Part shown: piece after piece, positions 8,833 through 54,845 of the stretch
Layout of the letters: every line of letters begins with the position of its first letter
Numbering within the stretch: the stretch's first letter is position 1
Source of the DNA: Pseudomonas sp. 7SR1
GTDB lineage: Bacteria; Pseudomonadota; Gammaproteobacteria; Pseudomonadales; Pseudomonadaceae
DNA: 64,000 nt
Direction: 5' to 3'
NCBI RefSeq assembly: GCF_900156465.1
Contig: NZ_LT707064.1
Location: forward strand, 4,169,001-4,233,000
Notes under the pieces: generated by a model
What the model was told of the DNA's origin: nothing
The model's database searches: none
What the model saw: the letters and a program-made list of their open reading frames with translations, nothing else
Position numbers and translations under genes: made by a program

Positions 8833-8934
8833 ATGACATTTTTCTTTGCTGTGGACGTCGTTGTCGCAACCGGTTGCCGGTTCTCCCAGATGCCATCGCC
8901 GACAGGCGTTCCTGCTGCGGAGGGCCGGGTATGA
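8833..8934 (+). CDS. Possible 33-aa upstream ORF, translationally coupled to the NRPS
   Basis: An ATG at 8833 preceded by AGAAGGA (about five bases spacing) opens a 33-codon frame beginning MTFFFAVDVV. Its TGA overlaps the NRPS ATG at 8931 in an ATGA arrangement. The frame is different from the NRPS frame. It could be a leader that couples translation, but in such GC-rich DNA a 33-codon open frame also arises by chance. No family resemblance was recognised. Confidence 0.35.
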   Translation: MTFFFAVDVVVATGCRFSQMPSPTGVPAAEGRV

Positions 8935-11900: not shown

Positions 11901-12120
11901 GAAACCACCCTGGCCGCGCTGTGGGCCGAGCTGCTCGGTGTCGAGCAGGTGGGGCGCCACGACCGCTTCTTCGAACTGGGCGGTCACTCGCTGCTGGCGG
12001 TCAAGCTGATCGAACGCATGCGCCAGCTGGATCTGGACCCGGATGTACGGGTGCTGTTCGGCCAGCCGACCCTGGCCACCCTGGCGGCCGCCACGGGAGA
12101 CAGCGGTGGCGTCGCAGTAC
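8931..12120 (+). other. Module 1: Cs-A(Thr)-T
   Basis: The starter condensation domain keeps HHIIQDG and lacks the dual-domain GD extension. The adenylation code is DFWNIGMVHK (FDFSVWE, LNQTPSAF, VIFGGEAL, NMYGITETTVH), a Thr code. The product probably ends as N-acylated Dhb1. Confidence 0.85.
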
Positions 12121-15100
12121 CGGCCAACCGGATCGCCCATGACACCACGCGCATCACCCCGGACATGCTGCCCCTGGCCGACCTGGACCAGGCCGCCATC
12201 GACCGCATCGTCGCCACCGTGCCGGGGGGCGTGACCAACGTGCAGGACATCTATGCCCTGGTGCCGTTGCAAGAGGGCATCCTCTACCATCATCTGGCAA
12301 CCACCGAAGGCGATCCATACCTGTTGCAGGCCCTGTTGCGCTTCGACAGTCGCCAGCGACTGGACGCTTTCGCCCAGGCTCTGCAGGCCGTGATCGCCCG
12401 GCACGATATCCTGCGCACCTCGGTGGCCTGGGAAGGGCTGGAGGAGCCGGTGCAAGTGGTCTGGCGCGAAGCGCCGCTGACGGTGCAGCAAGTGCACCTG
12501 GACCAGGTCGACGGCGATATCGCCGGCCAATTGCAGAGCCGCTTCGACCCACGCCACACCCGTTTCGACCTGCGCTTGGCGCCGATGATGCGCATCCACT
12601 TCAGCGAGGATCCCGCCGACGGCAGTTGGGTGGCAGTGCTGTTGTTCCATCATTTGATCGATGACGCCACATCTCTCGGCATGCTGGGCAAGGAAATCGA
12701 AGCACACCTGGAAGGGCGCGCAGCGGCGTTGCCGGTGTCGGTGCCTTACCGCAACTATGTGGCCCAGGTGCGCCTGGGCAGCGATAGCTCGCCACACGAG
12801 GCGTTCTTCAGCGAGATGCTCGGGGATGTCGACGAGCCGACATTGCCGTTCGGCCTGCAGGATGTGCAGGGTGACGGCAGCGGTATCGAGGAGGCGACGC
12901 TGGCCGTGGACACCGGGTTGGCCAGGCGCCTGCGCGCCCAGGCCCGGCGGCTGGGGGTGAGTACCGCCAGCCTGCATCACCTGGCCTGGGGCCAGGTAGT
13001 GGGGCGTCTGTCCGCTCGCCAGGACGTGGTGTTCGGTACCGTGCTGATGGGCCGCCTGCACAGCGGCCAGGATACCGGCCATGCCCTGGGCATGTTCGTC
13101 AACACCCTGCCGTTGCGGGTCGAGGCCGGCGCCCAGGGCGTGCTTGCCGCGCTCAAGACCACCCATGGCCGATTGGCCACCCTGCTGAGCCATGAACATG
13201 CGCCGTTGGCCCTGGCCCAGCGTTGCAGTGGCGTGGCCGCGCCGACGCCGTTGTTCAGCGCGCTGATGAACTACCGCCAGACCGCCGTTGCGGCACAGGC
13301 ACCCAAGGATGCAGGCCAGGCGCGGGTCTGGGCCGGGGCGCGGATCCTCGCAGGGGAAGAGCGCACCAACTACCCGCTGTCGCTGTCGGTGGATGACCTG
13401 GGCGAATCGTTCGGGCTGACGGTCCAGGCCGTGGCCGGGATCGGTGCGCAGCGGATCTGCGGCTACATGCACACCATGCTCGAATCGGTGGCCGATGCCC
13501 TGGACGGCGACGTGGCTACGCCGCTGCACAGCCTGGCCTTCGTACCCGCCGCCGAGCGTCGGCAATTGCTGGACGAGTTCAATGCCTTCGATGCGGCGTA
13601 CCCGTCGGGGTTGCGGGTCCATCAATTGTTCGAAGCCCAGGTGCGCGCCCAGCCCGACGCCATCGCGTTGAGCTATCAAGGCCAGCACCTGACTTACGCG
13701 CAACTGAACCGTCTGTCCAATCAGATTGCCCATCGGCTGCTGGAGTTGGGCATCCGTGTCGACGATCGGGTGGCGATCTGCATGGAACGCGGCCTGGAAA
13801 TGGTCGCCGGGCTGGTGGCCATCCTCAAGGCCGGTGCCGGCTACGTGCCGCTGGACCCGGCGTATCCCATCGAGCGCCTGGCGTACATGCTGCAGGACAG
13901 CGCGCCCAAGGTGCTGCTGACCCAGGACTCGTTGCAGGAGCGTTTCTCGCAATCAGGCGTGCCCGCGCTATTGCTCGACGCTCAGGCACGCGACGCCTTC
14001 GACATCAGTTCGCAACCCACCAGCGATCCGGATGTGCCGGCGAGCGACGACAGCCTGGCCTATGTCATCTACACCTCGGGTTCCACCGGGCAACCCAAGG
14101 GCGTGGCGATGGGGCACCGGGCCCTGGTCAACCTCATGCAATGGCAGGGCGCGCAAGCGGCTCAGCATGGCAGGCGTGGGGCGCGCACCTTGCAGTTCGC
14201 CGCGCTGGGCTTTGACGTGGCGTTCCAGGAAATCTTCAGCACCCTGTGCGACGGTGGCGAACTGTCCCTGATCCATGCTGACATCCGCCTGAATTTCCAC
14301 CGTCTGTTCGAGCACATCCGTCAACAGCGCATCGAGCGCCTGTACCTGCCGTGCATCGCCCTGCAGGCCCTGGCTGAGGCGGTGGTGGGCGAGCATCGGG
14401 ACACGCCCCTGGAGTGCAACCTGCGGGACGTCATCACCGCAGGCGAGCAGTTGCGCATCACGCCCCAGATCCGCGCCTTGTTCGAACGCCTGGATGGCTG
14501 CCGCCTGCACAACCACTACGGGCCGACCGAGTCCCATGTCACCACGGCGCTGACTTTGCCGGACGCTGTCGCGGCCTGGCCGACGTTGCCGGCGATCGGT
14601 CAGCCGGTGGCCAATACCCGCATCTATCTGCTGGACGAACACCTGCAACCGGTGCCGGTTGGCGTGGCGGGCGAGATCCACATCGGTGGCGTCTGCGTCG
14701 CCCGTGGCTACCTGAACCGCGACGACCTGACTGCGCAGCGTTTCATCCGCGACCCGTTCGCCAGCGATGGGCAGGCACGCCTGTACAAGACCGGCGACCT
14801 GGGGCGCTACCTGCCCGATGGCCATATCGAATACCTGGGTCGTAACGACGACCAGATCAAGATCCGCGGCTTCCGTGTCGAGCTGGGGGAAATCGAGGCC
14901 AGGCTCTGCCAGCACGCCGGTGTGAAAGAGGCGGCCGTGGTCGCCCGTGAGGACAGCCCCGGCGACAAGCGCCTGGTGGCCTACATCACCGCCCAGTCCA
15001 CTGATGCCGTGGCCGAGGCTGATGACCTGCGTGCGCACCTGCAAGCGCTGCTGCCGGACTATATGGTCCCGGCGGCCTTCGTGCGCCTGGAAAAACTGCC

Positions 15101-18100
15101 GCTGTCACCCAATGGCAAGCTGGACCGTCGTGCGTTGCCGGCCCCGGAAGCGGATGCCTTCGCCAGCCGTGCGTACGAAGCGCCGCTGGGGGAGGTGGAA
15201 ACCACGCTGGCAGGCTTGTGGGCCGAGGTGCTCGGTGTCGGGCAGGTGGGACGGCACGATCATTTCTTCGAGTTGGGCGGACATTCGCTGCTGGCGGTGA
15301 AACTGATCGAACTGATGCGCAAGGCCGGCCTGAGCGCCGATGTGCGGGTGCTGTTCGGTCAACCTACCTTGGCCGCCCTGGCGGCGGCCGTGGGCGGTCG
15401 CGCCGAGATCAGCGTGCCGGCCAACGGCATTCCCGCCGGGTGCCAGCGCATTACGCCGTCCATGCTGGCGCTGGTGAGCCTGGACCAGGACACCCTCGAC
15501 CGGATCGTCGCCGGTGTGCCGGGCGGTGCCGGCAACGTGCAGGACATCTACCCCCTGGCGCCGTTGCAGGAGGGCATCCTTTATCACCACATCGCCGCCG
15601 AACAAGGCGATCCCTACCTGCTGCAAGCCACGTTCGCCCTGGACAGCCGCCCTCGGCTCGACGACTTCGTGGCTGCCTTGCAGGCGGTGATCGATCGCCA
15701 CGATATCCTCAGGACCGCGCTGCTTCGCGAAGGCCTCGACGCGCCATTGCAGGTGGTACTGCGCCAGAGCCGGCTGACGCTCGAAGAGCAGGCCCTCGAC
15801 CCGGCCGAAGGCGATATCGCCGCGCAGTTGCAGGCGCGGTTCGATCCTCGTCATTGCCGGCTGGACCTGGACAAGGCGCCGCTGATGCGCCTGGCCTGCG
15901 CCTGGGACAGCGTTCACCAGCGGTGGGTCGCGGTTCTGCTGTTCCATCACATCGCCCTGGACCACACCGCCCTGGACGTGATGCAGGAGGAGATGCTGGC
16001 GTTCCTCGCGGGCGAGGCTGACCGCCTGGAGGCGGCCATGCCTTACCGCAACTACGTGGCCCAGACGCTGTTGGGGGTACCCCGTGAGCAGCATGAGCGT
16101 TTCTTCCGCGACATGCTCGCCGATGTGGAGGAGCCGACGCTGCCGTTCGGCCTGCGGGAAGTCCAGGGTGACGGTCGGGGCATCGAGGAGGTCAAGCTGA
16201 ACCTCGATCCCACGCTGTGCCGGCGCCTGCGGCAGCAGGCGCGCCAACTCGGCGTGAGCGCGGCAGCCTTGCATCACCTGGCGTGGGCACGAGTGCTGGG
16301 ACGTGTGTCCGGTCGCGAGGATGTGGTCTTCGGTACGGTGTTGCTGGGCCGCATGCAAAGCGGCGAAGGAGCCGATCGGGCCTTGGGCATGTTCATCAAC
16401 ACCCTGCCGTTGCGAGTCGACGTGGGAGGGCAGCCGGTACGCGCCGGGGTCAAGGCGACCCACGCACGGCTGACGGCCCTGTTGGGCCATGAGCACGCCT
16501 CCCTGGCCCTGGCCCAGCGCTGCAGTGGCGTACCGGCATCGTTGCCGCTGTTCAGCGCCTTGCTCAACTACCGCCACAGCCCGTCCCAGGAGGGCGAGAG
16601 TGTCGACCGCTGGGCCGGTACGCAAGTGCTGCAGGTCATGGAGCGGACCAACTATCCGTGCATGTTGTCGGTGGACGACCAGGGCGAAGGGTTCCTGCTG
16701 AGCGTGCAGACCGCCGGTGCGGTGGATGCTCGCCAGGTCGGTGGCTACATGCAGACAGCATTGGCGAGCCTGGTGGAGGCGCTGGAGTTCGCCCCCGACA
16801 CCGCCGTCAATGACCTGGAGATCCTGTCCGAGTCCGAGCGGCGGCAGGTGTTGCAGGCGTTCAACGCCACCCAGGCCGAATACCCGCTGGCGCAGACGAT
16901 TCACGGGCTGTTCGAAGCGCAAGTTCAGCGCACGCCGGAGTCGTTGGCGGTGCTGCATCGCGGACAACGCCTGAGCTATCGCGAACTGAACGAGCGGGCC
17001 AACCGCCTGGCCCATTACCTGCGCAAGCAGGGGGTGAAACCCGATTCCCGGGTGGCGATCTGTGTCGAGCGAAGCCTCGACATGGTGGTAGGCCTGTTGG
17101 CGATCCTCAAGGCCGGCGGCGGTTACGTACCGCTGGACCCGGCCTATCCGGCGGACCGGATCGCCTACATGCTGGAAGACAGCGCCCCGGCAGCGGTGCT
17201 GGCCCAGGCGGCGACGCTTGGATTGTTGGCCGGCGCTGCGATGCCGGTCATCGATCTGGGTAGCGAACTTTGGCAGGACGAGTCCGTCCTGAATCCGCAG
17301 GTTCCGGAACTGACTTCCGCGCACCTGGCCTATGTGATCTACACCTCCGGCTCCACCGGTCTGCCCAAGGGCGTGATGATCGAGCACCGCAACACGGTGA
17401 ACTTCCTGACCTGGGCACAGCGTTCCTTCGACTCTGAAACCTTGTCGAAGACGCTGTTCTCCACTTCGCTGAACTTCGACCTGGCGGTCTACGAGTGCTT
17501 CGCGCCGTTGACCTGCGGTGGCAGCATCGACGTGGTCGCCAATGTGCTGGAACTGCAACAGGGCGAGCACGACATCACCTTGATCAACACGGTGCCGTCG
17601 GCCCTCAAGGCACTGCTGGAATCCGGTGGCTTGGGCGAGGGTGTCGAGACCGTCAACGTGGCGGGTGAAGCCCTCAAGCGCAGCCTGGTGGAAGCGCTGT
17701 TCGAGCAGACTTCCGTCAAGCGCCTGTGCAACCTCTATGGCCCATCGGAAACCACCACTTACTCAAGCTGGGTATCGATGTCCCGCGAAGAGGGTTTCGC
17801 TGCGCATATCGGTAAACCGGTGGCCAATACCCAGTTCTATCTGCTGGATGAACAGCGACAACCGGTGCCATTGGGTGTGCCAGGAGAAATCTATATCGGC
17901 GGTGCCGGTGTGGCGCGCGGTTACCTCAATCGCGATGACCTCACCGCCGAACGCTTCCTGAAGGACCCGTTCAGCCACGAAACCAACGCCCGGATGTACA
18001 GGACCGGCGACCTGGGGAGATACCTGCCGGACGGCAATATCGAATACCTGGGTCGTAACGACGATCAGGTGAAGATCCGTGGTTTCCGCATCGAACTGGG

Positions 18101-21100
18101 GGAGATCGAAGCACGGCTCGCTGGGCATGAAGCGGTAAAAGAGGCGGTGATCCTGGCCCGTGAGGACGTCCCCGGCGATAAACGCCTGGTGGCCTATTTC
18201 ACCGAGTCCCGGGCTGTGGACATCGAGGCCCTGCGCAGCCACCTGCAAGGGCAATTGCCGGACTACATGGTGCCCGTGGCCTACGTACGCCTGGACGCCT
18301 TGCCGTTGACCCCCAATGGCAAGCTGGACCGCAAGGCCTTGCCGGCACCGGATCTGGATGCAGTGATCACCCGTGGCTACGAAGCCCCGCAAGGCGACGT
18401 CGAAACCACCCTGGCGCAGCTCTGGCAGGCGCTGCTGAGTGTGGAACAGGTCGGTCGCCATGACCATTTCTTTGAACTGGGCGGTCATTCCCTGCTGGCT
18501 GTCAGCCTGATCGAGCGGATGCGCCAGGTGGGCCTGAGTGCCGACGTGCGCGTGCTGTTCGGCCAACCCACCCTGGCCGCGCTGGCCGCGGCCGTCGGCC
18601 GCCATGACAACCAGGAAGTGCAGGTTCCGGCGAACCTGATCGCACCCGATTGCCAACGCATCACACCGGACCTGCTGCCGCTGGTGGCCTTGTCCCAGGA
18701 GGCCATCGATCGGATCGTGGCGAGCGTGCCGGGTGGTGCGGGCAATGTGCAGGACATCTATCCCCTGGCGCCGTTGCAGGAAGGCATCCTTTATCACCAT
18801 CTCGCCGCCAGACAGGGCGATCCCTACGTATTGCAGGCGCAGTTCGCCTTCGACAGCCGCGAACGCCTGGATGACTTCTCCCTGGCCTTGCAGGGTGTGA
18901 TCGACCGCCATGACATCCTGCGCACTTCCATGGCCTGGGAAGGGCTGGAGGAGCCGGTGCAGGTGGTCTGGCGCAAGGCAGTGTTGGGCGTCGAGCAGAT
19001 GCGCCTCAGTCCTGGCGACGGCGACGTCGCTGGCCAGTTGAAGGCGCGTTTTGACGCCAGTCATCATCGCCTGGATATTCGCCAGGCACCGCTGATGTGC
19101 ATTCGATTTGCCGAGGATGCGCCCAACCGGCGTTGGGTGGCGAGCCTGCTGTTCCATCACATGGCGCTTGACCATGCGGCGCTGGAAGTGGTTCGGCACG
19201 AGATGCAGGCCCACCTGCTGGGGCAGGCTGGCCGGTTGGGCGATGCGGTGCCGTATCGCAACTATGTGGCCCAGGCGCGCCTGGGCGTGAGCCCTGAAGA
19301 GCACGAAGAATTCTTCCGCGATATGCTCGGGGGTGTCGACGAGCCGACGCTGCCTTTCGGCTTGCAGGATGTTCGCGGCGATAACGCCGTCATGGAGGAA
19401 ACCCGACAGGACGTCGCGATCGATCTGAGTCAACGCCTGCGCGCCCAGGCCCGGCGCCTGGGGGTGAGCGCGGCTGCCCTGCATCACCTGGCCTGGGCTC
19501 AGGTGCTGGGCCGGGTCTCGGGCCGTGAGAAGGTGGTGTTCGGCACGGTACTGATGGGCCGGATGCAGGGCGGCGAGGGCGCCGACCGGGCGCTGGGGAT
19601 GTTCATCAATACACTGCCCATCTGTGTACCGGTGGGTGGGCGCGTGCGGGACAGTGTATTGGCGACGCACGCTCGACTGTCCGGATTGCTGGGGCATGAA
19701 CACGCCTCCCTGGCACTGGCCCAGCGTTGCAGCGGGGTAGCCGCGCCGACACCGTTGTTCAGCGCGCTGCTCAATTATCGTCATACCAGCGCCGAGTCCA
19801 TTACGTTGCACATGTCATCGGCCTGGCAAGGGATCGAGGCATTGGGTGGCGAAGAGCGCACCAACTATCCATTGACGTTGTCGGTGGACGATCTCGGCGA
19901 AGGCTTCAGTCTCACCGTCCAGGCGGTGACCGGTATCGACGCGGCACGGGTCGGTGCCTACATGGAAACGGCCCTGGCGAGCCTGGTGGAGGCCCTGGAG
20001 CATGCGCCGGAAAATCCATTGGCCGACCTGTCGATCTTGCCGGCGACGGAACGCGAAGAGTTGCTGGTGGGCTTCAACGCCACCCAGGCCGAATACCCGC
20101 TGGCGCAGACGATTCACGGGTTGTTCGAAGCGCAAGTTCAGCGCACGCCGGAATCGCTGGCGGTGCTGCATCGCGGACAACGCCTGAGCTATCGCGAACT
20201 GAACGAGCGGGCCAACCGCCTGGCCCATTACCTGCGCAAGCAGGGGGTGAAACCCGATTCCCGGGTGGCGATCTGTGTCGAGCGAAGCCTCGACATGGTG
20301 GTGGGCCTGTTGGCGATCCTCAAGGCCGGCGGCGGTTACGTACCGCTGGATCCGGCTTACCCGGCGGACCGGATCGCCTACATGCTGGAAGACAGCGCCC
20401 CGGCGGCGGTGCTGGCCCAGGCGGCGACGCTTGGATTGTTGGCCGGCGCTGCGATGCCGGTCATCGATCTGGGCAGCGAACTTTGGCAGGACGAATCCGT
20501 TCTGAATCCCCAGGTTCCGGAACTGACCTCGTCGCACCTGGCCTATGTGATCTACACCTCCGGTTCCACCGGTCTGCCCAAGGGCGTGATGATCGAGCAC
20601 CGCAACACGGTGAACTTCCTGACCTGGGCGCAGCGTTCCTTCGATGCGCAAACCCTGTCGAAGACGCTGTTTTCCACTTCTTTGAACTTCGACCTGGCGG
20701 TCTACGAGTGCTTCGCGCCGTTGACCTGCGGTGGCAGCATCGACGTGGTCACCAACGTGCTGGAACTGCAACAGGGCGAGCACGACATCACCTTGATCAA
20801 CACGGTGCCATCGGCCCTCAAGGCATTGCTGGAATCCGGTGGCTTGAGCGAGGGTGTCGAGATCGTCAACGTGGCGGGCGAGGCCCTCAAGCGCAGCCTG
20901 GTGGAAGCGTTGTTCGAACAAACCCAGGTCAAGCGTTTGTGCAACCTGTATGGCCCATCGGAAACCACCACTTATTCAAGCTGGGTATCGATGTCCCGCG
21001 AAGAGGGTTTCGCTGCGCATATCGGTAAACCGGTGGCCAACACCCAGTTCTATCTGCTGGATGAACACCGTCAACCGGTGCCATTGGGCGTACCGGGAGA

Positions 21101-24100
21101 GATCTATATCGGCGGTGCCGGTGTGGCGCGCGGTTACCTCAATCGCGATGACCTCACTGCCGAACGCTTCCTGAAGGACCCGTTCAGCAGCGAAACCAAC
21201 GCCCGGATGTACAGGACTGGCGACCTGGGTCGCTACCTGCCGGACGGCAATATCGAATACCTGGGCCGTAACGACGACCAGGTGAAGATCCGTGGTTTCC
21301 GCATCGAACTGGGGGAGATCGAAGCCAGGCTCGCTCAGTATCCAGGTCTCCAGGAAACCGTGGTCCTGGCGCGCGAGGACATACCCGGCGATAAACGTCT
21401 GGTCGCCTATTTCACTCAATCCCGGACGAATGAGGCCGTGGACATCGAGGCGCTGCGCAGCCACCTGCAGGGGCAACTGCCGGCATACATGGTGCCGATG
21501 GCCTATGTCCGTCTCGATGCCTTGCCGTTGACCCCCAACGGCAAGCTGGACCGCAAGGCCTTGCCGGCGCCAGACCTCGACTCGGTCATTACCCGAGGCT
21601 ATGAAGCCCCTCAAGGCGACGTCGAAACCACCCTGGCGCAGCTCTGGCAGGCGCTGCTGGGTGTGGAACAGGTCGGTCGTCACGACCATTTCTTCGAACT
21701 GGGCGGTCATTCCTTGCTGGCTGTCAGCCTGATCGAGCGGATGCGTCAGGTGGGCCTGAGTGCCGACGTGCGCGTGCTGTTCAGTCAACCCACCCTGGCT
21801 GCGTTGGCCGCCGCGGTGGGTGGCAGCAATGAAATCGTGGTACCGGCCAACCGGATCCCGTCTGGCTGTACGCGGATCACCCCTGACATGCTGCTCCTGG
21901 CCGACCTGGACCAGGAGACCCTCGACCGGGTCGTTGAAACGGTGCCCGGTGGCGCTCGCAACGTGCAGGACATCTACCCCCTGGCGCCGCTGCAGGAAGG
22001 CATTCTTTATCACCATCTCGCCGCCCGGCAGGGCGACCCCTACGTGCTCCAGACCCAGTTCGCCTTCGCAACCAGGGAGCGCCTGGAAGACTTCTGCCGT
22101 GCGTTGCAGCAGGTCATCGACCGCCACGACATTCTCAGGACCGCGGTACTCTGGGAAGGGCTCGATCAACCCTTGCAGGTCGTCTGGCGCGAAGCAGCGC
22201 TGATGCAGGAAGAGGTCGCACTGGACCCGGTCGACGGCGACATGGCGGCGCTGCTGTACCAGCGCTTCGACTCGAGGCATCACCGCCTGGATATCACCCG
22301 GGCCCCGATGCTGCAACTGGTCTATGCCCATGACACCGATACGGATCGCTGGCTGGCGATGCTGTTGTTCCACCATATGGCACTGGACCACACCGCGATG
22401 GACGTGGTGCGCCACGAGATGCAGTTGCATCTGCTGGGCCAGGCCGATCGTCTGGGCGCTGCGATGCCGTATCGCAACTATGTGGCCCAGGCGCGTCTGG
22501 GCGTGAGCCCTGAAGCGCACGAAGCGTTCTTCCGCGAAATGCTGGGCGATGTGGACGCACCGACCCTGCCGTTCGGCCTGCAGGATGTACAGGCCACGGG
22601 GCAGGGTATCGAGGAGGCCACGCGGGTACTCGCCCATGATCTGGGCCAGGGCTTGAGAGCGCGAGCCCGTCACCTGGGCGTGAGCGCCGCGAGCCTGGTC
22701 CATCTGGCCTGGGCGCAGGTGCTGGGGCGAGTGACCGGCCAGGACGATGTGGTGTTCGGCACCGTGCTGATGGGCCGGATGCAGGGCGGCGAGGGGGCTG
22801 ATCGAGCCTTGGGCATGTTCATCAACACCTTGCCGTTGCGGGTGCGCGTGGGGTCAACCGGCGTCCGTGCCGGCGTGAAAGCCACCCACGCACGACTGGC
22901 TGCGTTGCTGGCCCATGAGCACGCCTCGCTGGCGCTGGCGCAACGCTGCAGCGGTGTGGCTGCGCCGACGCCGTTGTTCAGCGCCTTGCTCAACTACCGC
23001 CACAGCGCACCGACGGCGTCCAGCGAGGCGCTGCCGGCCTGGAACGGTATCGAGGTGCTCGGTGGCGAGGAACGCACCAACTATCCGCTGATGCTGTCGG
23101 TGGACGACCTGGGCGACGGCTTCAGTCTCACCGTCCAGGCGGTGACCGGTATCGACGCGGCACGGGTCGGTGCCTACATGGAAACGGCCCTGGCGAGCCT
23201 GGTGGAGGCCCTGGAGCATGCGCCGGAAAATCCATTGGCCGACCTGTCGATCTTGCCGGCGACGGAACGCGAAGAGTTGCTGGTGGGCTTCAACGCCACC
23301 CAGGCCGAATACCCGCTGGCGCAGACGATTCACGGGTTGTTCGAAGCGCAAGTTCAGCGCACGCCGGAATCGCTGGCGGTGCTGCATCGCGGACAACGCC
23401 TGAGCTATCGCGAACTGAACGAGCGGGCCAACCGCCTGGCCCATTACCTGCGCAAGCAGGGGGTGAAACCCGATTCCCGGGTGGCGATCTGTGTCGAGCG
23501 AAGCCTCGACATGGTGGTGGGCCTGTTGGCGATCCTCAAGGCCGGCGGCGGTTACGTACCGCTGGATCCGGCTTACCCGGCGGACCGGATCGCCTACATG
23601 CTGGAAGACAGCGCCCCGGCGGCGGTGCTGGCCCAGGCGGCGACGCTTGGATTGTTGGCCGGCGCTGCGATGCCGGTCATCGATCTGGGCAGCGAACTTT
23701 GGCAGGACGAATCCGTTCTGAATCCCCAGGTTCCGGAACTGACCTCGTCGCACCTGGCCTATGTGATCTACACCTCCGGTTCCACCGGTCTGCCCAAGGG
23801 CGTGATGATCGAGCACCGCAACACGGTGAACTTCCTGACCTGGGCGCAGCGTTCCTTCGATGCGCAAACCCTGTCGAAGACGCTGTTTTCCACTTCTTTG
23901 AACTTCGACCTGGCGGTCTACGAGTGCTTCGCGCCGTTGACCTGCGGTGGCAGCATCGACGTGGTCACCAACGTGCTGGAACTGCAACAGGGCGAGCACG
24001 ACATCACCTTGATCAACACCGTACCGTCCGCCCTCAAGGCACTGCTGGAATCCGGTGGCTTGGGCGAGGGTGTCGAGACCGTCAACGTGGCGGGCGAAGC

Positions 24101-40900: not shown

Positions 40901-41410
40901 GGGGAGATCGAAGCCCGGTTGGCCCAACACCATGACGTGAAGGAAGCCGTGGTGCTGGTTCGCGAGGACGCGCCTGGGGAGAAACGCCTGGTGGCGTATT
41001 TCACGCTGCGCTCCAGCGACGAGGCGGTGGATATCGAAGCCCTGCGCGCTCATCTGCAAAGTCGCTTGCCGGACTACATGGTGCCGGCGGCCTATGTACA
41101 GCTCCAGGCCTTGCCCCTCACCTCCAATGGCAAGCTGGACCGCAGGGCCTTGCCGGTGCCGGACCAGGCTTCGATCGTCAGCCGGGGCTACGAAGCCCCC
41201 GTGGGGGAGGTCGAAAACACCCTGGCCCGCCTGTGGAGGCAGGTCCTGCATGTGGAGCGGGTGGGGCGCCACGATCATTTCTTCGAGCTGGGCGGCCATT
41301 CGTTGCTGGCGGTCAACCTGATCGAACAGATGCGCCAGGTCGGCTTGAGTGCCGATGTCCGCGTACTGTTCGGCCAGCCGACCCTGGCGGCCCTGGCCGC
41401 GGCGGTGGGC
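37994..41410 (+). other. Module 10: docking-C-A(Val)-T
   Basis: TubC-like docking residues 1-60 precede a condensation domain with FHHMALDHAAL. The code is DALWIGGTFK, Val type. DNA is clearly diverged from the module 6/7/16 group despite the same code. Confidence 0.75.
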
Positions 41411-44400
41411 GGCGGCAATGAGGTCGAGGTCCCGGCCAACGCAATCACCTGCGGCTGCGAACGGATCACGCCTGACCTGTTGCCGCTGGTGTCGTTGACC
41501 CAGGAGGCGATCGACCAGATCGTCGCCAGCGTGCCGGGCGGTGTGTCCAACGTACAGGACATCTACCCGCTGGCGCCGCTGCAGGAAGGCATTCTCTACC
41601 ACCATATCGCGGCGCGGCAGGGCGATCCCTACGTGCTCCAGGCGATGTTCGCCTTCCACAGCGAAGCGCGTATCGAGGCCTTCGCGCAGGCGCTGCAAGG
41701 CGTTATCGATCGTCACGATATCCTGCGCACGGCGGTGTTGTGGGAGGGCCTGGAACAGCCGATCCAGGTGGTCTGGCGCAGGGCCGCGTTGAGTGTCGAA
41801 GCCGTCACGCTGGAAACCGGAGGCGCCGATGCCGTGACCCAGCTCCATTCGCGCTTCGACTCCCGGCACCATTGCCTGGACATTCGCCAGGCTCCGCTGA
41901 TATGCCTGCGCCATGCCCATGACCCGGTCAACCAGCGCTGGGTGGCGATGCTGCTGTTCCACCATATCGCGCTGGACCATACCGCGCTGGAAGTGGTGCA
42001 ACAGGAGATGCAGATGCTCCTGCTCGGCCAGGCCGATCGGCTCGGCGAGGCGATGCCGTACCGAAACTATGTGGCCCAGGCTCGCCTGGGTGTCAGCGAG
42101 CAGGAGCACGAGGCATTTTTCCGCGACATGCTGGGCGACGTCGACGAACCGACGCTGCCCTTGGGCTTGCAACAGGTCCAGGGTGACGGCCTTGGCATCG
42201 AGGAGGCGAAGCTCGCGGTGGAAGCCGGCTTGAGCCGCCGGCTGCGGGCACAGGCGCGGCGAATCGGTGTCAGTGCGGCCAGCCTGCATCACCTGGCGTG
42301 GGCCCAGGTGCTGGGACGGTTGTCCGGACGCCAGGATGTTGTCTTCGGCACGGTGCTGATGGGGCGGATGCAGGGCGGCGAGGGCGCCGACCGGGCCCTG
42401 GGCATGTTCATCAATACGTTGCCGCTGCGGGTCGATCTGCAAGCACAGGGCGTGCTGGCCGGCGTCAAGGCTACCCATGGGCGACTGACTGCCTTGCTCG
42501 GCCACGAGCATGCGTCCCTGGCCCTGGCCCAGCGTTGCAGCGGCGTGGCTTCACCGGCCCCGCTGTTCAGCGCGTTGCTGAACTACCGGCACAGCGCGGC
42601 CGATGCGACCTCGGTCGAGGCCCGGGATGCCTGGCAGGGCATGGAAGTCCTTGGCAGCGAGGAACGTACCAACTACCCGCTGACCCTGTCGGTGGATGAC
42701 TTGGGCGAAGGCTTCATGTTGAGCACCCTTGTCGTCCAGGGAATAGGTGCGCAGCGCATCTGTGCCTATATGCACACCGCGCTCGAAGGCCTGGTACAAG
42801 CCCTCGAGCAAGCGCCGCGCATGCCCCTCGACCGTCTGGAGATCCTGCCGCAAACCGAACGCGACCTGTTGCTGGCGGATTTCAACGCCACCGATCGCCC
42901 TTATCCGCAGGACCAGACCGTCCTGGCGCTGTTCGAGGCCCAGGTTGCACACCTGCCCCAGGCGGTCGCGGCGGTGCATGGGCAGCGACAGGTCAGTTAT
43001 GCGCAACTGAACGAGCGAGCCAATCGCCTGGCCCATTACCTGTTGGGACTCGGCGTGCAACCGGACGACTGCGTCGCGATCCTGCTGCCGCGCTCGATCG
43101 ACCTGCTGGTCGGCCAGTTGGCGGTCCTCAAATGCGCGGCGGCCTATGTGCCCCTGGATCGCAACGCTTCGTTGGAGCGCCAGGGCTTCATGCTGGAGGA
43201 TTGCCGGGCGAAGGTCTTGCTCACCTTCAGTACCGAAGTCGCCCCCGAGGGCACCTCTCGCGTCGAGCTGGACACCTTGACCCTGCAAGGCCCGATCCAC
43301 AATCCGGCACTGGCGCAGTCCAGTGAATCGATTGCCTACATCATGTATACCTCGGGTTCGACAGGGCAGCCCAAAGGTGTCCTGGTTCCCCACCGGGCCA
43401 TCAACCGGCTGGTGATCAACAACGGCTACGCCGATTTCAATGCCCACGACCGAATCGCCTTTGCCTCCAATCCGGCGTTCGACGCCAGCACCATGGATGT
43501 CTGGGGCGCGCTGCTCAACGGCGGGCAGGTGGTGGTGATCGACCATGAAACCCTCCTCGAACCAGCGCGGTTCGCCCAGGTCCTGGTCGATACGGGCGTC
43601 ACGGTGCTGTTCGTGACCACGGCCATTTTCAACCAGTACGTGCAACTGATCCCCGAAGCCATCGGCGGCTTGCGCATTCTTTTGTGCGGTGGCGAACGCG
43701 CCGACGCGGCCTCCTTCCGACGCTTGTTGAGCCTGGCGCCGGGCTTGCGCCTGGTGCATTGCTACGGTCCGACCGAAACCACCACCTACGCCACGACCCT
43801 GGAAGTCAAGGCTGTGGCCGAGCACGCGCAAAGCGTGCCCATTGGCGGGCCCATCTCCAATACCCGGGTCTACGTACTGGATGCACGCCAGCGGCTGGCG
43901 CCCCTGGGTGTGGTCGGCGAGATCTGCATCGGCGGCAAGGGCGTGGCCAAGGGGTACTTGAACCGAGCGGACCTGAGCGCGGAGAAGTTCATCGCCGATC
44001 CGTTCAGCCCCGAGCCCGGCGCGCTGCTTTACCGCACCGGTGACCTGGGCCGCTGGCTGCCCGAGGGCAATCTGGAGTGCCTGGGACGAAACGACGATCA
44101 GGTCAAGGTCCGCGGGTTCCGTGTGGAACTGGGAGAGATCGAGGCCAGGCTCGTCGCCTGTGACGGCGTGAAGGACGCGGTGGTCATGGTGCGGGCCGAC
44201 GAGCCGGGAGAGAAACGCCTGGTGGCGTACCTCATTGCACAGCCTGAGGACAGCCTCACCGTGGCGGCGTTACGCGAGCAGTTGTCCGCCACCCTGGCCG
44301 AATACATGGTACCTGCCGCGTTTGTCCTGATGCCGGCGTTCCCCTTGACACTGAACGGCAAGGTGGACCGCAAGGCCTTGCCGGTGCCGGCGGCGGAGGC

Positions 44401-47400
44401 GTACGCCAGCCAGGCCTACGAGGCCCCCCAGGGCGAGGTCGAGCAAGCGCTGGCCGGCCTGTGGGCCGAGTTGTTGAACGTCGAGCGTGTGGGGCGTCAC
44501 GACAACTTCTTCGAACTGGGCGGCCATTCGCTGCTGGCGATGAGGCTGATCGAGCGCATGCGCCAGGCCGAGATGGCCGTGGACGTGCGGGTCCTGTTCA
44601 GCCAACCGACGCTGCGGGCACTGGCAGCCGCCGTGGGCGGACACCGCGAGGTGGTGGTACCGGCCAATGCCATCGTCCAAGGGTGCGAGCGAATCACCCC
44701 GGACATGTTGCCACTGGCTGCATTGAGCCAGGAGGCCATCGATCGGATCGTGGCAAGCGTGCCGGGAGGCACGCAAAACGTGCAGGACATCTACCCCCTG
44801 GCGCCCCTGCAGGAAGGCATCCTGTATCACCACCTGACGGCGAAAAAAGGTGATCCCTATGTGCTGCAGACGCTGTTCGGCTTTGACAGCCGCGCACGCC
44901 TGGATGACTTCATCCTCGCGTTGCAGCGGGTGATCGAGCGCCACGACATCTTCAGGACCTCGATGGCCTGGGAAAGCCTCGACGAACCGGTGCAGGTGGT
45001 ATGGCGGCAGGCTCGGCTGATCGTCGATGAGCTGGAACCGGATCCGAGCGCCGGGAATGTCGTTGCGCAGCTGCAGGAGCGTTTCGACGCCCGGCATGTG
45101 CGCCTGGATGTGCGCCAGGCGCCGATGTTGCGCCTGGTTATCGCAGAGGACGTCGACAACGGACGCTGGATCGCGATGCTCCTGTTCCATCACATGGTGC
45201 TGGACCATACGGGGCTGGAAGTCCTGGAGCGTGAAATGCAGGCCCAGTTGCTTGGCAAGGCGCACGAACTGGGCAATGCGGTGCCTTACCGCAACTATGT
45301 GGCCCAGGCGCGCCTGGGTGTCGGCCAGCAGGAACACGAAGCCTTTTTCCGCGAGATGCTTGGCGATATCCAGGAGCCGACCCTGCCGTTCGGTCTGCAG
45401 GATGTGCAGCGCGATGGCTCCGGTGTGGAGGAAGTGAAGCTGGCGGTGGAGGCGGGCTTGTGTCGCCGCCTTCGCGCCCGGGCCCGGCAGTTGGGCGTCA
45501 GTGCGGCGAGTGTGATGCACCTGGCATGGGCCCAGGTACTGGGTCGTGTCAGCGGTCGCGACGAAGTGGTGTTCGGCACCGTGCTGTTGGGGCGGATGCA
45601 GGGGGGCGAGGGCGCCGATCGGGCACTGGGCATGTTCATCAACACCCTGCCATTGCGGGTGAGCCTGGGTGGACACGGTGTGTCCGCCGGGGTCAAGGCC
45701 ACCCACAGGCGTCTCACTGGCCTGCTGGGGCATGAGCATGCCTCACTGGCCCTGGCGCAACGCTGCAGCGGTGTGGTTGCACCGACGCCGTTGTTCAGTT
45801 CAATGCTCAACTATCGCCATTGCGGGGTCGAGGTGACTGCCCAGGCGCTGTCGGCGTGGCAGGGCATCGAGTCGATTGGCGGCCAAGAGCGTACCAATTA
45901 CCCCCTGGCGCTGGCGGTGGATGACGAAGGCGAAGGCTTCAGCCTGGTGGTGCAGGCACTGGCCGGTACCGATGCGCGGCGTGTCGGCGACTACATGCAC
46001 ACTACCCTCGAAAGCCTGGTCACGGCACTGGAGCTGGCGCCGGAGACGCCCCTGGGTGAGCTGGCGATTCTGCCCATGACTGAACGCCAGCGCCTGCTGG
46101 AAACGTTCAATGCCACCACGGTCGATTATCCCCGAGGCCTGACCTTGCACGGTCTGTTCGAAACCCGTGCCGAGGCCAGCCCGGACGCCATCGCCGTGGT
46201 GACTGACGACGAGCAATGGAGCTACCAGCAACTGAACCACCGCGCCAACCAGGTTGCCCATCGCCTGATCGCCCTGGGCATCCGCCCGGACGATCGGGTG
46301 GCGATCTGCGCCGAGCGCAGCCTGGAAATGGTGGCCGGCCTGCTGGGCATTCTCAAGTCCGGTGCTGCTTATGTGCCGCTCGATCCGGATTACCCGCTCG
46401 ATCGCCTGGCCTACATGCTGGACAACTGCGCGCCGAGCGTGGTGCTGACCCAGGGGGCCTTGCAGGCACGCCTGCCCGCCACCGATGCCCGGACGTTGTT
46501 GCTGGACGATGCCGCGTTCTCGACCCAGTCGACGGCTAATCCAAGGGTCGAGGAGCTGCGCTGCGACCATCTGGCCTATGTCATCTACACCTCCGGTTCC
46601 ACCGGCCTGCCCAAAGGCGTGATGAACGAACATGGGGCGGTGGTCAACCGCCTGCTGTGGATGCAGGACGCTTATCCGTTGACGGCTGCCGATGCGGTGC
46701 TGCAGAAGACCCCGTTCAGCTTCGACGTATCGGTGTGGGAGTTCTTCTGGCCGCTGTTCACCGGCGCCCGGCTGGTGATGGCCCGTCCTGGCGGGCATCG
46801 CGACCCAGCCTACCTGTGCGAGGTAATCCAGGCCCAGGGCATCAGCACGCTGCACTTCGTACCGTCGATGCTGGACGTGTTCCTGGCCCATGGCGCCGCC
46901 CACGGCTGCGACGGGCTGCGGCAGGTGATGTGCAGCGGCGAAGCCTTGCCGGGGCATCTGGTGCGGCGTTTCAAGGCGCAACTGCCGCAGGTGGCGTTGC
47001 ACAACCTGTACGGCCCCACCGAAGCCGCCGTGGACGTCACGGCCTGGGACTGCTCGGGCGTCGATACCCCCGACAGCACCCCCATCGGCAAGCCGATCGC
47101 CAACACCCGCATCTACCTGCTGGACGCCCATCGTCAGCCGGTGCCCATGGGGGTGGCTGGGGAGATCTACATCGGCGGTGTGCAGGTGGCACGCGGTTAC
47201 CTGCATCGTCCGGAACTCACCGCCGAGCGTTTCCTCGACGACCCGTTCAGCACCGTGCCGAATGCGCGGATGTACCGCACCGGCGACCTGGGCCGCTACC
47301 TGGCGGACGGCAACATCGACTACCTGGGGCGTAACGACGATCAGGTTAAGATTCGCGGTTTCCGCATCGAACTGGGCGAGATCGAAGCGCGGCTGGCGCA

Positions 47401-50400
47401 ACATCCAGGCCTCAAGGAGGCCGTGGTACTGGCCCGTGAGGAGGAGCCCGGCGAGAAGCGCCTGGTGGCCTATTTCACGACCCATGCCGCCGATGCGGGC
47501 CTCGACATCGAGACTCTGCGGGGCCATCTGCAGAACCTGCTGCCTGAATACATGGTGCCGAGCGCTTTCGTGCACCTCGACGCCTTGCCGCTGACCCCCA
47601 ATTGCAAGCTGGACCGCAAGGCATTGCCAGCGCCGGATCGTACTGCGGTAGTGGCCCGTGCGTACGAAGCTCCACAAGGCGAAACCGAGGCGACCATCGC
47701 CGGGATCTGGCAGGACTTGCTCGGTATCGAACGGGTCGGCCGCCACGACAATTTCTTCGAGCTGGGCGGTCATTCGCTGTTGGCCGTGAAAATGATCGAG
47801 CGTATGCGTCAGGTCAAGCTGAGCGTCGACGCACGCGTCCTGTTCGACCAATCGACATTGGCGGCACTGGCCGCTGCGGTCGGCGGGTACAGGGAGGTCG
47901 ATGTACCGGCCAATGGCATCCCGGCTGGTTGCACACGGATTACGCCGGGGATGCTGCCGCTGGCCGAGCTGGATCAGCCGGCCATCGATGAAATCGTGGC
48001 AAGGGTGCCGGGTGGCGTGGCCAACGTCCAGGACATCTATGCCTTGGCACCTCTGCAGGAGGGGATCCTGTATCACCACCTTGCCGCCGCCCAGGGTGAT
48101 CCCTATCTGCAACACGTGATGTTCGGTTTTGACAGTTTCGCGCGCCTCGAACAGTTCGCCCAGGCGTTGCAGGCCGTCATTGCCCGGCACGATATCCTGC
48201 GTACCGGTGTGCTCTGGGAGGGCTTGCCCGAGCCCATGCAGGTGGTATGGCGCGACGCCCGTTTGAATGTCGAGCCGGTCGTTCTGGATCCGGCCGCAGG
48301 GGATATCGCCACCCAACTGCACCAGCGTTTCGACCCCAGGTTCTATCGCCTGGACATCCGCCAGGCACCGATGATGCGGATTGCCTATGCCCAGGACCCG
48401 GAGAACCAACGTTGGGTGGGCATGTTGCTGTTCCATCATCTGGTGGACGATGTCACCTCACTGGCGGTGCTGGTTGCGGAAATCGAGGCACACATGCTGG
48501 GCCAGGCACAGCGCTTGCCCGCCTCGGTGCCGTACCGCAACTACGTGGCCCAGGCTCGCCTGGGGGTGAGCCGCGAGGCCCACGAAGCGTTTTTCCGCGA
48601 CATGCTCGGCGACGTCGACGAGCCGACGCTGCCGTTCGGTCTGCAGGATGTGCAAGGTGACGGCAGCGGGATCGAGGAAGCTCGCCAGGATGTCGAGGCG
48701 GACCTGAGCCGCCGGTTGCGTGCCCAGGCGCGGCAGTTGGGGGTCAGTGCGGCGAGTGTGTATCACCTGGTCTGGGCGCAGGTCTTGAGCCAGGTGTCGG
48801 GCCAGGACGACGTGGTGTTCGGTACCGTGCTGGTCGGCCGGATGCAAGGTGGCGAAGGGGCCGACCGGGCGCTGGGGATGTTCATCAATACGCTGCCCGT
48901 GCGGGTGAGCCTGGGGGCGCAAGGCGTGCGGGCCGGGGTCAAGGCGGCCCATGCACGATTGACGGCCTTGCTCGGCCATGAACATGCCTCGTTGGCCCTG
49001 GCACAACGCTGCAGCGGCGTGGAGGCACCGACGCCGTTGTTCAGTGCCTTGCTCAACTATCGGCACACCGCAACGACGGTTTCGGCCGAAGCGGTGTCGG
49101 CCTGGAACGGCATCCAGATGCTCAGTGGCGAAGAGCGGACCAACTACCCGTTGATGTTGTCGGTGGACGACCTGGGCGAGGCGTTCAGTTTCACCGTCAT
49201 GACCCCGGCCCGCATTGGCGCGCAGCGGCTTTGCGGGTACGTGCAGCACACGTTGGAAAGTCTGGTCCGGATGCTGGAGCAGACGCCGCAAGCGCCGTTG
49301 CACCAGTTATCGGTGCTGCCGGCCACGGAGCGCGAGCAACTGCTGGTGGGCTTCAACGCCACCCAGGCCGAATACCCGCTGGAGCAGACGATTCACGGGT
49401 TGTTCGAAGCGCAAGTTCAGCGCACGCCGGAGTCGCTGGCGGTGCTGCATCGCGGACAACGCCTGAGCTATCGCGAACTGAACGAGCGGGCCAACCGCCT
49501 GGCCCATTACCTGCGCAAGCAGGGGGTGAAACCCGATTCCCGGGTGGCGATCTGTGTCGAGCGAAGCCTCGACATGGTGGTGGGCCTGTTGGCGATCCTC
49601 AAGGCCGGCGGCGGTTACGTACCGCTGGATCCGGCTTACCCGGCGGACCGGATCGCCTACATGCTGGAAGACAGCGCCCCGGCGGCGGTGCTGGCCCAGG
49701 CGGCGACGCTTGGATTGTTGGCCGGCGCTGCGATGCCGGTCATCGATCTGGGCAGCGAACTTTGGCAGGACGAATCCGTTCTGAATCCCCAGGTTCCGGA
49801 ACTGACCTCGTCGCACCTGGCCTATGTGATCTACACCTCCGGTTCCACCGGTCTGCCCAAGGGCGTGATGATCGAGCACCGCAACACGGTGAACTTCCTG
49901 ACCTGGGCGCAGCGTTCCTTCGATGCGCAAACCCTGTCGAAGACGCTGTTTTCCACTTCTTTGAACTTCGACCTGGCGGTCTACGAGTGCTTCGCGCCGT
50001 TGACCTGCGGTGGCAGCATCGACGTGGTCGCCAATGTGCTGGAACTGCAACAGGGCGAGCACGACATCACCTTGATCAACACCGTACCGTCGGCCCTCAA
50101 GGCACTGCTGGAATCCGGTGGCTTGGGCGAGGGTGTCGAGACCGTCAACGTGGCGGGCGAGGCCCTCAAGCGCAGCCTGGTGGAAGCGCTGTTCGAGCAG
50201 ACTTCCGTCAAGCGCCTGTGCAACCTGTATGGCCCATCGGAAACCACCACTTACTCAAGCTGGGTATCGATGTCCCGCGAAGAGGGTTTCGCCGCGCATA
50301 TCGGTAAACCGGTGGCCAACACCCAGTTCTATCTGCTGGATGAACAGCGACAACCGGTGCCGTTGGGTGTACCAGGAGAGATCTATATCGGCGGCGCCGG

Positions 50401-54400: not shown

Positions 54401-54845
54401 GAAGATGTCCCGGGGGACAAGCGCCTGGTGGCCTATTTCACCGAGTCCCGGGCTGTGGACATCGAGGCCCTGCGCAGCCACCTGCAAGGGCAATTGCCGG
54501 ACTACATGGTCCCGGTGGCCTACGTGCGCCTGGACGCCTTGCCGTTGACCCCCAACGGCAAGCTGGACCGCAAGGCCTTGCCGGCGCCAGACCTCGACTC
54601 GGTCATTACCCGTGGCTACGAAGCCCCTCAAGGCGACGTCGAAACCACCCTGGCGCAGCTCTGGCAGGCGCTGCTGGGCGTGGAACAGGTTGGGCGTCAC
54701 GACCATTTCTTCGAACTGGGCGGTCATTCCCTGCTGGCTGTCAGCCTGATCGGACGCATGCGCCAGTTGGGCTGGTCGGCGGATATCCGTGTACTGTTCG
54801 GCCAGCCGACCTTGAAGGCGCTGGCCGCTGCGGTTGGCAGCGGTC
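51491..54845 (+). other. Module 14: docking-C-A(Ala)-T
   Basis: The code is DLYNNALTYK. The condensation domain is FHHMALDHAAL. The carrier has the unusual SLIGRMRQLGWSADIRVL sequence, shared only with module 15. Confidence 0.75.

What the first reader, a model, noticed from the sequence alone, without database searches (positions are those of the whole stretch)
12650..48480. A condensation-domain subtype occurs exactly downstream of Thr/Ser modules and may mark Dhb/Dha formation
Of the 16 internal condensation domains, 13 carry HH-x2-LDH-x2-[LM] (for example HHMALDHTAL). Three carry HHLxDDxTSL instead: module 2 (near 12650), module 9 (near 35285) and module 13 (near 48435). These are the only ones whose upstream module codes for Thr (1, 8) or Ser (12), and no other complete C domain in the window follows Thr or Ser. 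They also share a PASVPYRNY- or PVSVPYRNY-type segment. Related peptides contain Dhb and Dha, yet no dehydratase gene is visible. Established: modified-amino-acid C domains in other systems dehydrate Ser/Thr in cis. Inference: these three dehydrate the donor residue. The homoserine donor (module 9 to 10) meets the ordinary subtype, so it would stay hydroxylated.
Basis: partly seen in the sequence, partly recalled or inferred. Interest (0 to 1): 0.72.

Follow-up and report, generated by a model that had tools for sequence, protein, structure and literature searches.

The report
Dehydrating variant of epimerizing condensation domains
In a giant Pseudomonas peptide-building enzyme, the linking domains that carry an extra aspartate sit only after threonine or serine units whose counterparts in a known sister peptide have lost water, so this small motif likely marks the domains that would do the dehydrating and would let a genome reader predict it.

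Summary
Of the 16 internal C domains in the window, 13 carry HHxxLDH and three (C2, C9, C13) carry HHLxDD[AV]TSL; the three follow Thr1, Thr8 and Ser12. One correction: beyond the window, Thr18 and Ser21 meet ordinary LDH domains, and corpeptin keeps exactly those two. The motif tracks dehydration, not Thr/Ser as such. Mapped on seven published peptide families, 16 of 17 dehydrated positions meet DD domains and 15 of 15 intact Thr/Ser facing C/E-type domains meet non-DD ones (p 5.7e-8, rows partly related). Among 741 deduplicated C domains, DD follows Thr/Ser in 85 of 85 readable cases; ND/HD relatives follow other residues in 17 of 21. The domains carry dual epimerization/condensation hallmarks (HHxxxxGD in 105 of 105 readable) and lack the CmodAA signature. 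Best reading: a dehydrating C/E subtype, made by swapping the post-Asp His for Ala/Val and adding an Asp. Catalysis is untested. A 2023 review foresaw dehydrating C/E domains and HHxxDDx was noted for solanimycin, so novelty is moderate.

The parts
12195..13466 (+). C2: DD-type condensation domain, donor Thr1, acceptor Pro2
   Evidence: domain and motif coordinates and codes
12648..12680 (+). C2 catalytic motif HHLIDDATSLG
12288..12320 (+). C2 N-terminal C/E motif HHLATTEGDPY
34830..36086 (+). C9: DD-type condensation domain, donor Thr8, acceptor Hse9; AlphaFold2 model mean pLDDT 89.2
35283..35315 (+). C9 catalytic motif HHLVDDATSLA
34923..34955 (+). C9 N-terminal C/E motif HHLAAAQGDPY
47981..49240 (+). 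C13: DD-type condensation domain, donor Ser12, acceptor Ala13
48434..48466 (+). C13 catalytic motif HHLVDDVTSLA
48074..48106 (+). C13 N-terminal C/E motif HHLAAAQGDPY
10200..12194 (+). A1-T1, donor module for C2; A code DFWNIGMVHK (Thr), T motif GGHSL
   Evidence: boundaries are simply the gap between C domains
32832..34829 (+). A8-T8, donor module for C9; A code DFWNIGMVHK (Thr), T motif GGHSL
   Evidence: boundaries as above
45995..47980 (+). A12-T12, donor module for C13; A code DVWHMSLVDK (Ser), T motif GGHSL
   Evidence: boundaries as above
38273..39541 (+). C10: ordinary xDH domain (HHMALDHAALT) facing the Hse9 donor, a control that keeps its hydroxyl
   Evidence: Hse9 intact in corpeptin
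8874..37997 (+). NRPS 1, modules 1-9 (true start codon not settled)
37994..51166 (+). NRPS 2, modules 10-13
51491..64000 (+). NRPS 3, modules 14-22, runs past the window end; C18 with HHMVDDATSLG lies beyond it

Best explanation
C2, C9 and C13 carry the hallmarks of dual epimerization/condensation domains and are predicted to remove water from the Thr or Ser handed over by the module before them, giving Dhb or Dha, and then to join it to the next residue. Shown: motif, donors, C/E hallmarks, tree position and match with published products. Inferred: the C/E machinery (kept HHxxxxGD motif and catalytic His) takes the alpha proton as for epimerization; Ala/Val in place of the His after the catalytic Asp removes the step that would put a proton back on the other face; the added Asp at HH+4 acts as the acid that lets the beta hydroxyl leave (E1cB-type elimination), giving Z-Dhb from L-Thr; the alkene is then condensed. 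Exchange of that Asp for Asn, His or Ser is inferred to give a third state that neither epimerizes nor dehydrates.
For: Product mapping: 16 of 17 published dehydrated positions (corpeptin 1, 8, 12, 17; tolaasin 1, 13; fuscopeptin 1, 14; syringopeptin-22 1, 9, 14, 18; syringopeptin-25 1, 10, 12, 17) meet DD domains in gene clusters of matching module order, a few hydrophobic residues apart; 15 of 15 intact Thr/Ser facing C/E-type domains meet non-DD domains (14 xDH, 1 SD); Fisher p 5.7e-8, related rows not removed (structures; clusters; test). Medipeptins show Dhb1, Dhb8, Dha12, Dhb17 with Thr18 and Ser21. Survey: of 741 deduplicated C domains, DD follows Thr in 76, Ser in 9, other 0, unreadable 22; xDH follows Thr/Ser in 54 of 300 readable. 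HHxxxxGD fits a strict pattern in 105 of 105 DD domains (2 cut), 365 of 426 xDH (22 cut) and 9 of 23 ND/HD relatives. ND/HD donors: 17 other, 4 Thr, 2 unreadable. Viscosin-group C2 and fuscopeptin C4 are called epimerization-inactive in print, and domains at those places are ND here; syringomycin l-Ser1 is followed by HHLVSDATSL. With the motif columns removed DD domains are not one clade (AU p 3.4e-7, at least 6 changes on starred branches); some lie in Xanthomonas and Longimicrobiaceae, after Thr/Ser. Pfam names no dehydratase among the 7 ORFs left and 10 right of the synthetase genes that were tested.
Against: No activity was measured. DD is not needed everywhere: Z-Dhb7 of the syringomycin group meets HHL[VI]SDNVTL in 3 of 3 clusters read. 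The solanimycin paper reports HHxxDDx also in SolF, whose donor is not described as Ser. Phylogenetically independent pairs are few: DD against donor, 2 to 4 agree, 0 oppose, not significant; loss of the His alone against donor is weaker, 2 to 4 agree, 0 to 2 oppose. Loci and proteins were found by similarity to DD domains and many rows are orthologs, so survey p-values are inflated. The strains read are mostly not those whose peptides were solved, and tolaasin, fuscopeptin and corpeptin orders were pieced from several contigs. Idle epimerization also occurs with an ordinary xDH domain (viscosin C6: print, motif), so the xDH state is not strict. Four ND/HD domains follow Thr in clusters whose products are unknown to me.
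Confidence: 0.8

Rival explanations
1. The DD motif is only a donor-site adaptation that accepts an already dehydrated residue; another enzyme in trans removes the water.
For: Nothing here shows which protein does the chemistry; in solanimycin an enoyl-hydratase homologue was also considered.
Against: Pfam on 17 neighbouring ORFs names a TauD oxygenase, ABC/HlyD/MacB/OEP/AcrB exporters, a thioesterase and a class III aminotransferase, no dehydratase; ORFs further out were not tested. The strict link of DD with an intact HHxxxxGD motif (105 of 105) would not be needed for mere acceptance.
Confidence: 0.12
2. Co-inheritance: Thr/Ser A-T units and a DD C domain moved together in recombination, so the link is history and not function.
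For: Recombination is common in such genes (recalled) and many DD rows are orthologs; independent pairs are too few for significance.
Against: DD falls in several separate places of the tree, each readable donor being Thr/Ser (85 of 85); 54 Thr/Ser donors meet xDH domains instead; the split follows dehydrated against intact residues in solved peptides.
Confidence: 0.05
3. They are CmodAA dehydrating domains like AmbE, AlbB and LgnD.
Against: CmodAA is described with strict DG and a K/R before C5; here the residue after Asp is Ala, Val or Ile and the K/R place is Ala in 98% of 104 DD domains in the register I prefer. The upstream T is GGHS in 100 of 105 and the T-to-C spacing is that of dual domains. 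HHxxxxGD is present.
Confidence: 0.03

Closest known systems
Dual epimerization/condensation (C/E) domains of Pseudomonas lipopeptide synthetases (arthrofactin type)
   Same: HHxxxxGD N-terminal motif, GGHS donor T domain, long T-C linker, place in the tree
   Different: HHxxDD[AV]TS replaces HHxxxDH; product is a dehydro residue and not a D residue (inferred)
SolF/SolG/SolH C domains of solanimycin (Dickeya), dual clade with HHxxDDx (PMC10204066)
   Same: Same motif change in the same clade, proposed there to dehydrate Ser. SolG is the best NCBIfam match of C13 (482.7 bits), but the ordinary C14 matches it as well (486.5), so this match is not specific
   Different: Iterative single module, no product-level controls, dehydration untested; also present in SolF, so no donor rule is stated there
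C/E-clade domains before Dhb in stenothricin and stendomycin (PMC10880069, section 3.4)
   Same: Inferred there as 'special dehydrating C/E domains'
   Different: Streptomyces; their motif was not read here; section 3.4 does not name Pseudomonas peptins and 'syringopeptin' does not occur in that paper
CmodAA / dehydrating C domains (AmbE, AlbB, LgnD)
   Same: cis dehydration of a T-bound beta-hydroxy residue (there shown, here inferred)
   Different: HHxxxDG with K/R helix and GGDS donor T domain; separate clade in print
Epimerization-idle C/E domains (viscosin C2, fuscopeptin C4; PMC10531924)
   Same: Share the xD-A-T-S form of the motif
   Different: Asn instead of Asp at HH+4, often an altered HHxxxxGD, donor passed on as L residue

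Membership tests
Dual C/E condensation domain | N-terminal HH[I/L]xxxxGD motif | tested here: met
   present in C2, C9, C13 and in 105 of 105 DD domains with that stretch read
Dual C/E condensation domain | HHxxxDH catalytic motif (Ala or Asn seen less often in print) | tested here: not met
   Ala, Val or Ile follows the Asp; PMC10531924 (passages) allows Ala or Asn as a rarer form
Dual C/E condensation domain | groups with C/E domains apart from LCL domains | tested here: met
   104 rows with xDH, DD and ND domains on a starred branch, motif columns removed
Dual C/E condensation domain | GGHS-type donor T domain and long T-C linker | tested here: met
   GGHS in 100 of 105 (also usual before LCL here, 81 of 86); median T-to-HH distance 224 as in xDH, 192 in the LCL class; yardstick from PMC10212144 passages
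Dual C/E condensation domain | epimerizes the donor residue | not testable with these tools
   needs an assay; related products show a dehydro residue instead
CmodAA / dehydrating C domain | strict DG in HHxxxDG | tested here: not met
   definition from PMC11342130 passages
CmodAA / dehydrating C domain | [K/R]SVLLAAH helix before C5 | tested here: not met
   K/R place Ala 98%, final His place Trp 100% of 104 DD domains in the register I prefer; in the other possible register C9 has Val (frequency not printed); no regex hit in the ORFs searched
CmodAA / dehydrating C domain | donor T domain with GGDS | tested here: not met
   GGHS in 100 of 105 DD cases, GGDS in 5
CmodAA / dehydrating C domain | membership of the CmodAA clade | not tested
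   no CmodAA sequence could be fetched for the tree
CmodAA / dehydrating C domain | removes water in cis | not testable with these tools
   product correlation only
SolG-type HHxxDDx dual-clade domain | HHxxDDx in a dual-clade domain | tested here: met
   the NCBIfam SolG model does not separate C13 from the ordinary C14

The most novel reading that the evidence does not exclude
One short motif is a three-way chemical switch in epimerizing condensation domains: HHxxxDH usually epimerizes, HHxxDD[A/V] dehydrates, HHxxND/HD/SD-A does neither and passes the L residue on. The dehydrating state arose several times (Pseudomonas, Xanthomonas, Longimicrobiaceae and probably Burkholderia), each time behind Thr or Ser, so Dhb/Dha and many idle C/E domains can be read from sequence.
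Probability: 0.5. Interest if true: 0.8.

Novelty: new variant of a known kind. Interest (0 to 1): 0.62.

Why it matters
A-domain phylogeny separates Dhb poorly from Thr in Pseudomonas peptides (PMC9948697, passages), and why some C/E domains do not epimerize is called elusive (PMC10531924, abstract and passages). A motif that separates dehydrated, epimerized and untouched donors would make both questions testable with point changes in one domain, and would improve structure prediction for a large family of lipopeptides. In the listings and the passages I then read, I saw no statement of this rule for Pseudomonas, only HHxxDDx in solanimycin. The library holds open-licence papers only, and most listed papers were not opened.

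Tried and rejected
CmodAA reading: rejected on published signature residues; a tree with CmodAA rows could not be made, because the AmbE chain ranked too low for its letters to be printed and no other source was at hand. Single origin of DD: rejected. 'DD follows every Thr/Ser': rejected (C19, C22). An orthologous D/N flip between syringopeptin-22 and -25: considered and dropped, because beside one other ND domain the SP25 Val21 domain is nearest to xDH domains and not to SP22's Thr18 domain. A class-wide search (369 genomes, E <= 1e-8) matched 3 genomes, one of them the window's own; the matched domains of the other two read xDH. Two protein searches with short regions gave few rows. In one search one further ND row (HHLINDAVSL after Leu) fell in the 'rest' class and is not in the ND/HD counts, and one ND row counted as GD-lost differs only by Phe in the pattern. 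In one search some minimum distances are negative through a look-up slip; only medians are used. Code meanings are recalled. Position 12 is listed as Dhb in corpeptin while the code in P. corrugata is Ser and medipeptins have Dha12; counted as dehydrated either way. Donor codes of tolaasin Thr13 and viscosin Thr3 were cut at contig ends and read in part.
Full report
What is there. The window is 4169001-4233000 of a single-contig 6.09 Mb genome with 72 matches to the Pfam condensation family. It carries a 22-module lipopeptide synthetase in three proteins: modules 1-9 (ORF 8874-37997), 10-13 (37994-51166) and 14-22 (51491 to past the window end). [quoted passage not shown] residue names from recalled code tables). 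This is the order of corpeptin with its dehydro residues read as Thr or Ser (structure table in PMC3039948, passages seen). The closest protein listed (100% over the queried C domain) is named for Pseudomonas sp. NFACC36.

The observation. C2, C9 and C13 read HHLxDD[AV]TSL; the other 13 internal C domains of the window read HHxxLDH. C19 follows Thr18 and C22 follows Ser21, and both are ordinary LDH domains. Corpeptin has dehydro residues at 1, 8, 12 and 17 and keeps Hse9, aThr18 and Ser21. The motif thus separates the two fates at all seven hydroxyl positions of this line.

Wider product test. Named Pseudomonas loci (76) and stretches of genomes were read with the same parser. Clusters whose module order fits published peptides gave: corpeptin 1, 8, 12, 17 (P. 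corrugata loci L071, L030, L016, L046); syringopeptin-22 1, 9, 14, 18 (P. congelans L067, L058, L059 and KUIN-1; two hydrophobic residues differ from the published chain); syringopeptin-25 1, 10, 12, 17 (G094; one residue differs); tolaasin 1, 13 (P. palleroniana, four contigs); fuscopeptin 1, 14 (P. fuscovaginae). All 16 meet DD. The one dehydrated position that does not is Z-Dhb7 of the syringomycin group, which meets HHL[VI]SDNVTL in the window's own genome, in strain FEN and in KUIN-1. Intact Thr/Ser facing C/E-type domains: corpeptin 18 (P. corrugata) and 21 (window's genome), tolaasin 3, 6, 14, fuscopeptin 15, SP22 15, 16, SP25 18, 19, viscosin 3, 6, 8 (P. palleroniana) and syringomycin 2 meet xDH (14 of 14), and syringomycin l-Ser1 meets HHLVSDATSL. 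The table DD/not-DD by dehydrated/intact is 16/0 and 1/15, Fisher p 5.7e-8. Homologous positions are counted apiece, and the strains read are mostly not those whose peptides were solved. Medipeptins from P. mediterranea show Dhb1, Dhb8, Dha12, Dhb17 with Thr18 and Ser21 (PMC8477016, passages). Outside the genus, Burkholderia glumae proteins P0045 and P0066 carry HHLIDDATSL before a Pro module (donor not on the protein), and burriogladiodins, from a B. gladioli cluster said to be conserved in B. glumae, have a Thr-Pro start by code and Z-Dhb next to Pro in the product (PMC7866175, passages).

Donor survey. After removal of duplicates, 741 of 820 C domains remained (rows not included; partial hits dropped by the parser). 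DD domains: donor Thr 76, Ser 9, other 0, unreadable 22. xDH: Thr 35, Ser 19, other 246, unreadable 148. ND or HD domains with the same kind of tail: other 17, Thr 4, unreadable 2. The N-terminal HHxxxxGD motif fits a strict pattern in 105 of 105 DD domains (2 cut), 365 of 426 xDH domains (22 cut) and 9 of 23 ND/HD domains. Outside Pseudomonas, DD or ED followed by a non-His residue was read after Thr or Ser in Xanthomonas, Longimicrobiaceae, Marilutibacter and unnamed sources (P0030, P0050, P0075, P0107, P0097, P0104, P0039). DD and xDH were defined by the motif, so their contrast at HH+4 and HH+6 is by definition; independent columns that also differ are HH+8 (Ser against Ala), HH+30 (Ser against Ala/Pro), HH+17 and HH+210. 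Selection bias: loci and proteins were found through similarity to DD domains, but donors were not used in the selection.

Phylogeny. With both motif stretches removed, DD, ND and xDH domains fall together apart from LCL domains (114 rows). DD is not one clade (AU p 3.4e-7; at least 6 changes on starred branches, 102 rows). Module-2-type DD domains form one group near Pro-donor xDH domains (that join not starred), and most other Pseudomonas DD domains group with most ND and HD domains. Independent pairs of DD against donor: 2 to 4 agree, none oppose, too few for significance; for loss of the His alone, 2 to 4 agree and 0 to 2 oppose.

Mechanism. Shown: dual C/E hallmarks (HHxxxxGD; GGHS donor carrier in 100 of 105; T-to-HH median 224 residues as in xDH, 192 in the LCL class; yardsticks from PMC10212144 and PMC1894796 passages). 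Inferred: the domain abstracts the alpha proton as a C/E domain does; without the His after the catalytic Asp, reprotonation fails; the new Asp helps the beta hydroxyl leave. The retention of HHxxxxGD in DD domains and its decay in many ND/HD domains fits a need for proton abstraction where water is removed. ND domains stand at viscosin-group C2 and fuscopeptin C4, which PMC10531924 calls epimerization-inactive (passages); Leu1 is L in viscosin and Ser1 is L in syringomycin. The same paper writes that no clear sequence correlate of idle epimerization is known, that the Pseudomonas C/E motif is HHxxxDH with Ala or Asn less often in place of the last His, and that viscosin C6 is idle too; that domain is xDH here, so not every idle domain is explained.

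What is known. CmodAA dehydrating domains are described with strict DG, a K/R helix and GGDS carriers (PMC11342130 passages; PMC10880069 passages and sections 18 part 2 and 19). These are not met here. PMC10880069 infers dehydrating C/E domains for stenothricin and stendomycin. PMC10204066 (passages and section 12 part 2) notes HHxxDDx in three dual-clade solanimycin C domains and suggests that SolG dehydrates; it finds the motif in SolF too, whose donor is not described as Ser, which is a caution outside Pseudomonas. So the kind was foreseen; the rule, the product controls and the Asp/Asn contrast were not seen in the papers found.

Verdict. Observation confirmed and sharpened; interpretation supported with two corrections; catalysis untested; a new variant of a known kind.

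Noticed in passing
L131; own genome 4139731-4139883 (-); L152-L155: The C domain after Thr7 of the syringomycin-type synthetases (Dhb7) reads HHL[VI]SDNVTL in three clusters: His replaced by Asn but no second Asp, perhaps another route to dehydration.
   Followed up: partly
L140-L142 (G010 second cluster): Five HHLIHDATSL domains with an altered N-terminal motif HHLMAPEDDPY follow Thr (2), Ala, Val and one unread donor; a third variant of the same motif position.
   Followed up: partly
own genome 4145395-4148082 (-); FEN L154-L155: Two C domains in tandem at the start of the second mycin-type synthetase, the inner one reading HHLLADRTSM.
   Followed up: no
window modules 3-5 and 13-15: Ala modules look near-identical in their A domains by eye, a sign of recent duplication or gene conversion; not measured.
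   Followed up: no
L095-L098 (KUIN-1): The syringopeptin-type synthetase frames look interrupted in this assembly; pieces were read apart.
   Followed up: no
L016, P. corrugata DSM 7228: Module 12 codes for Ser while the published corpeptin table lists Dhb at 12; Dha would be expected, as in medipeptins.
   Followed up: partly
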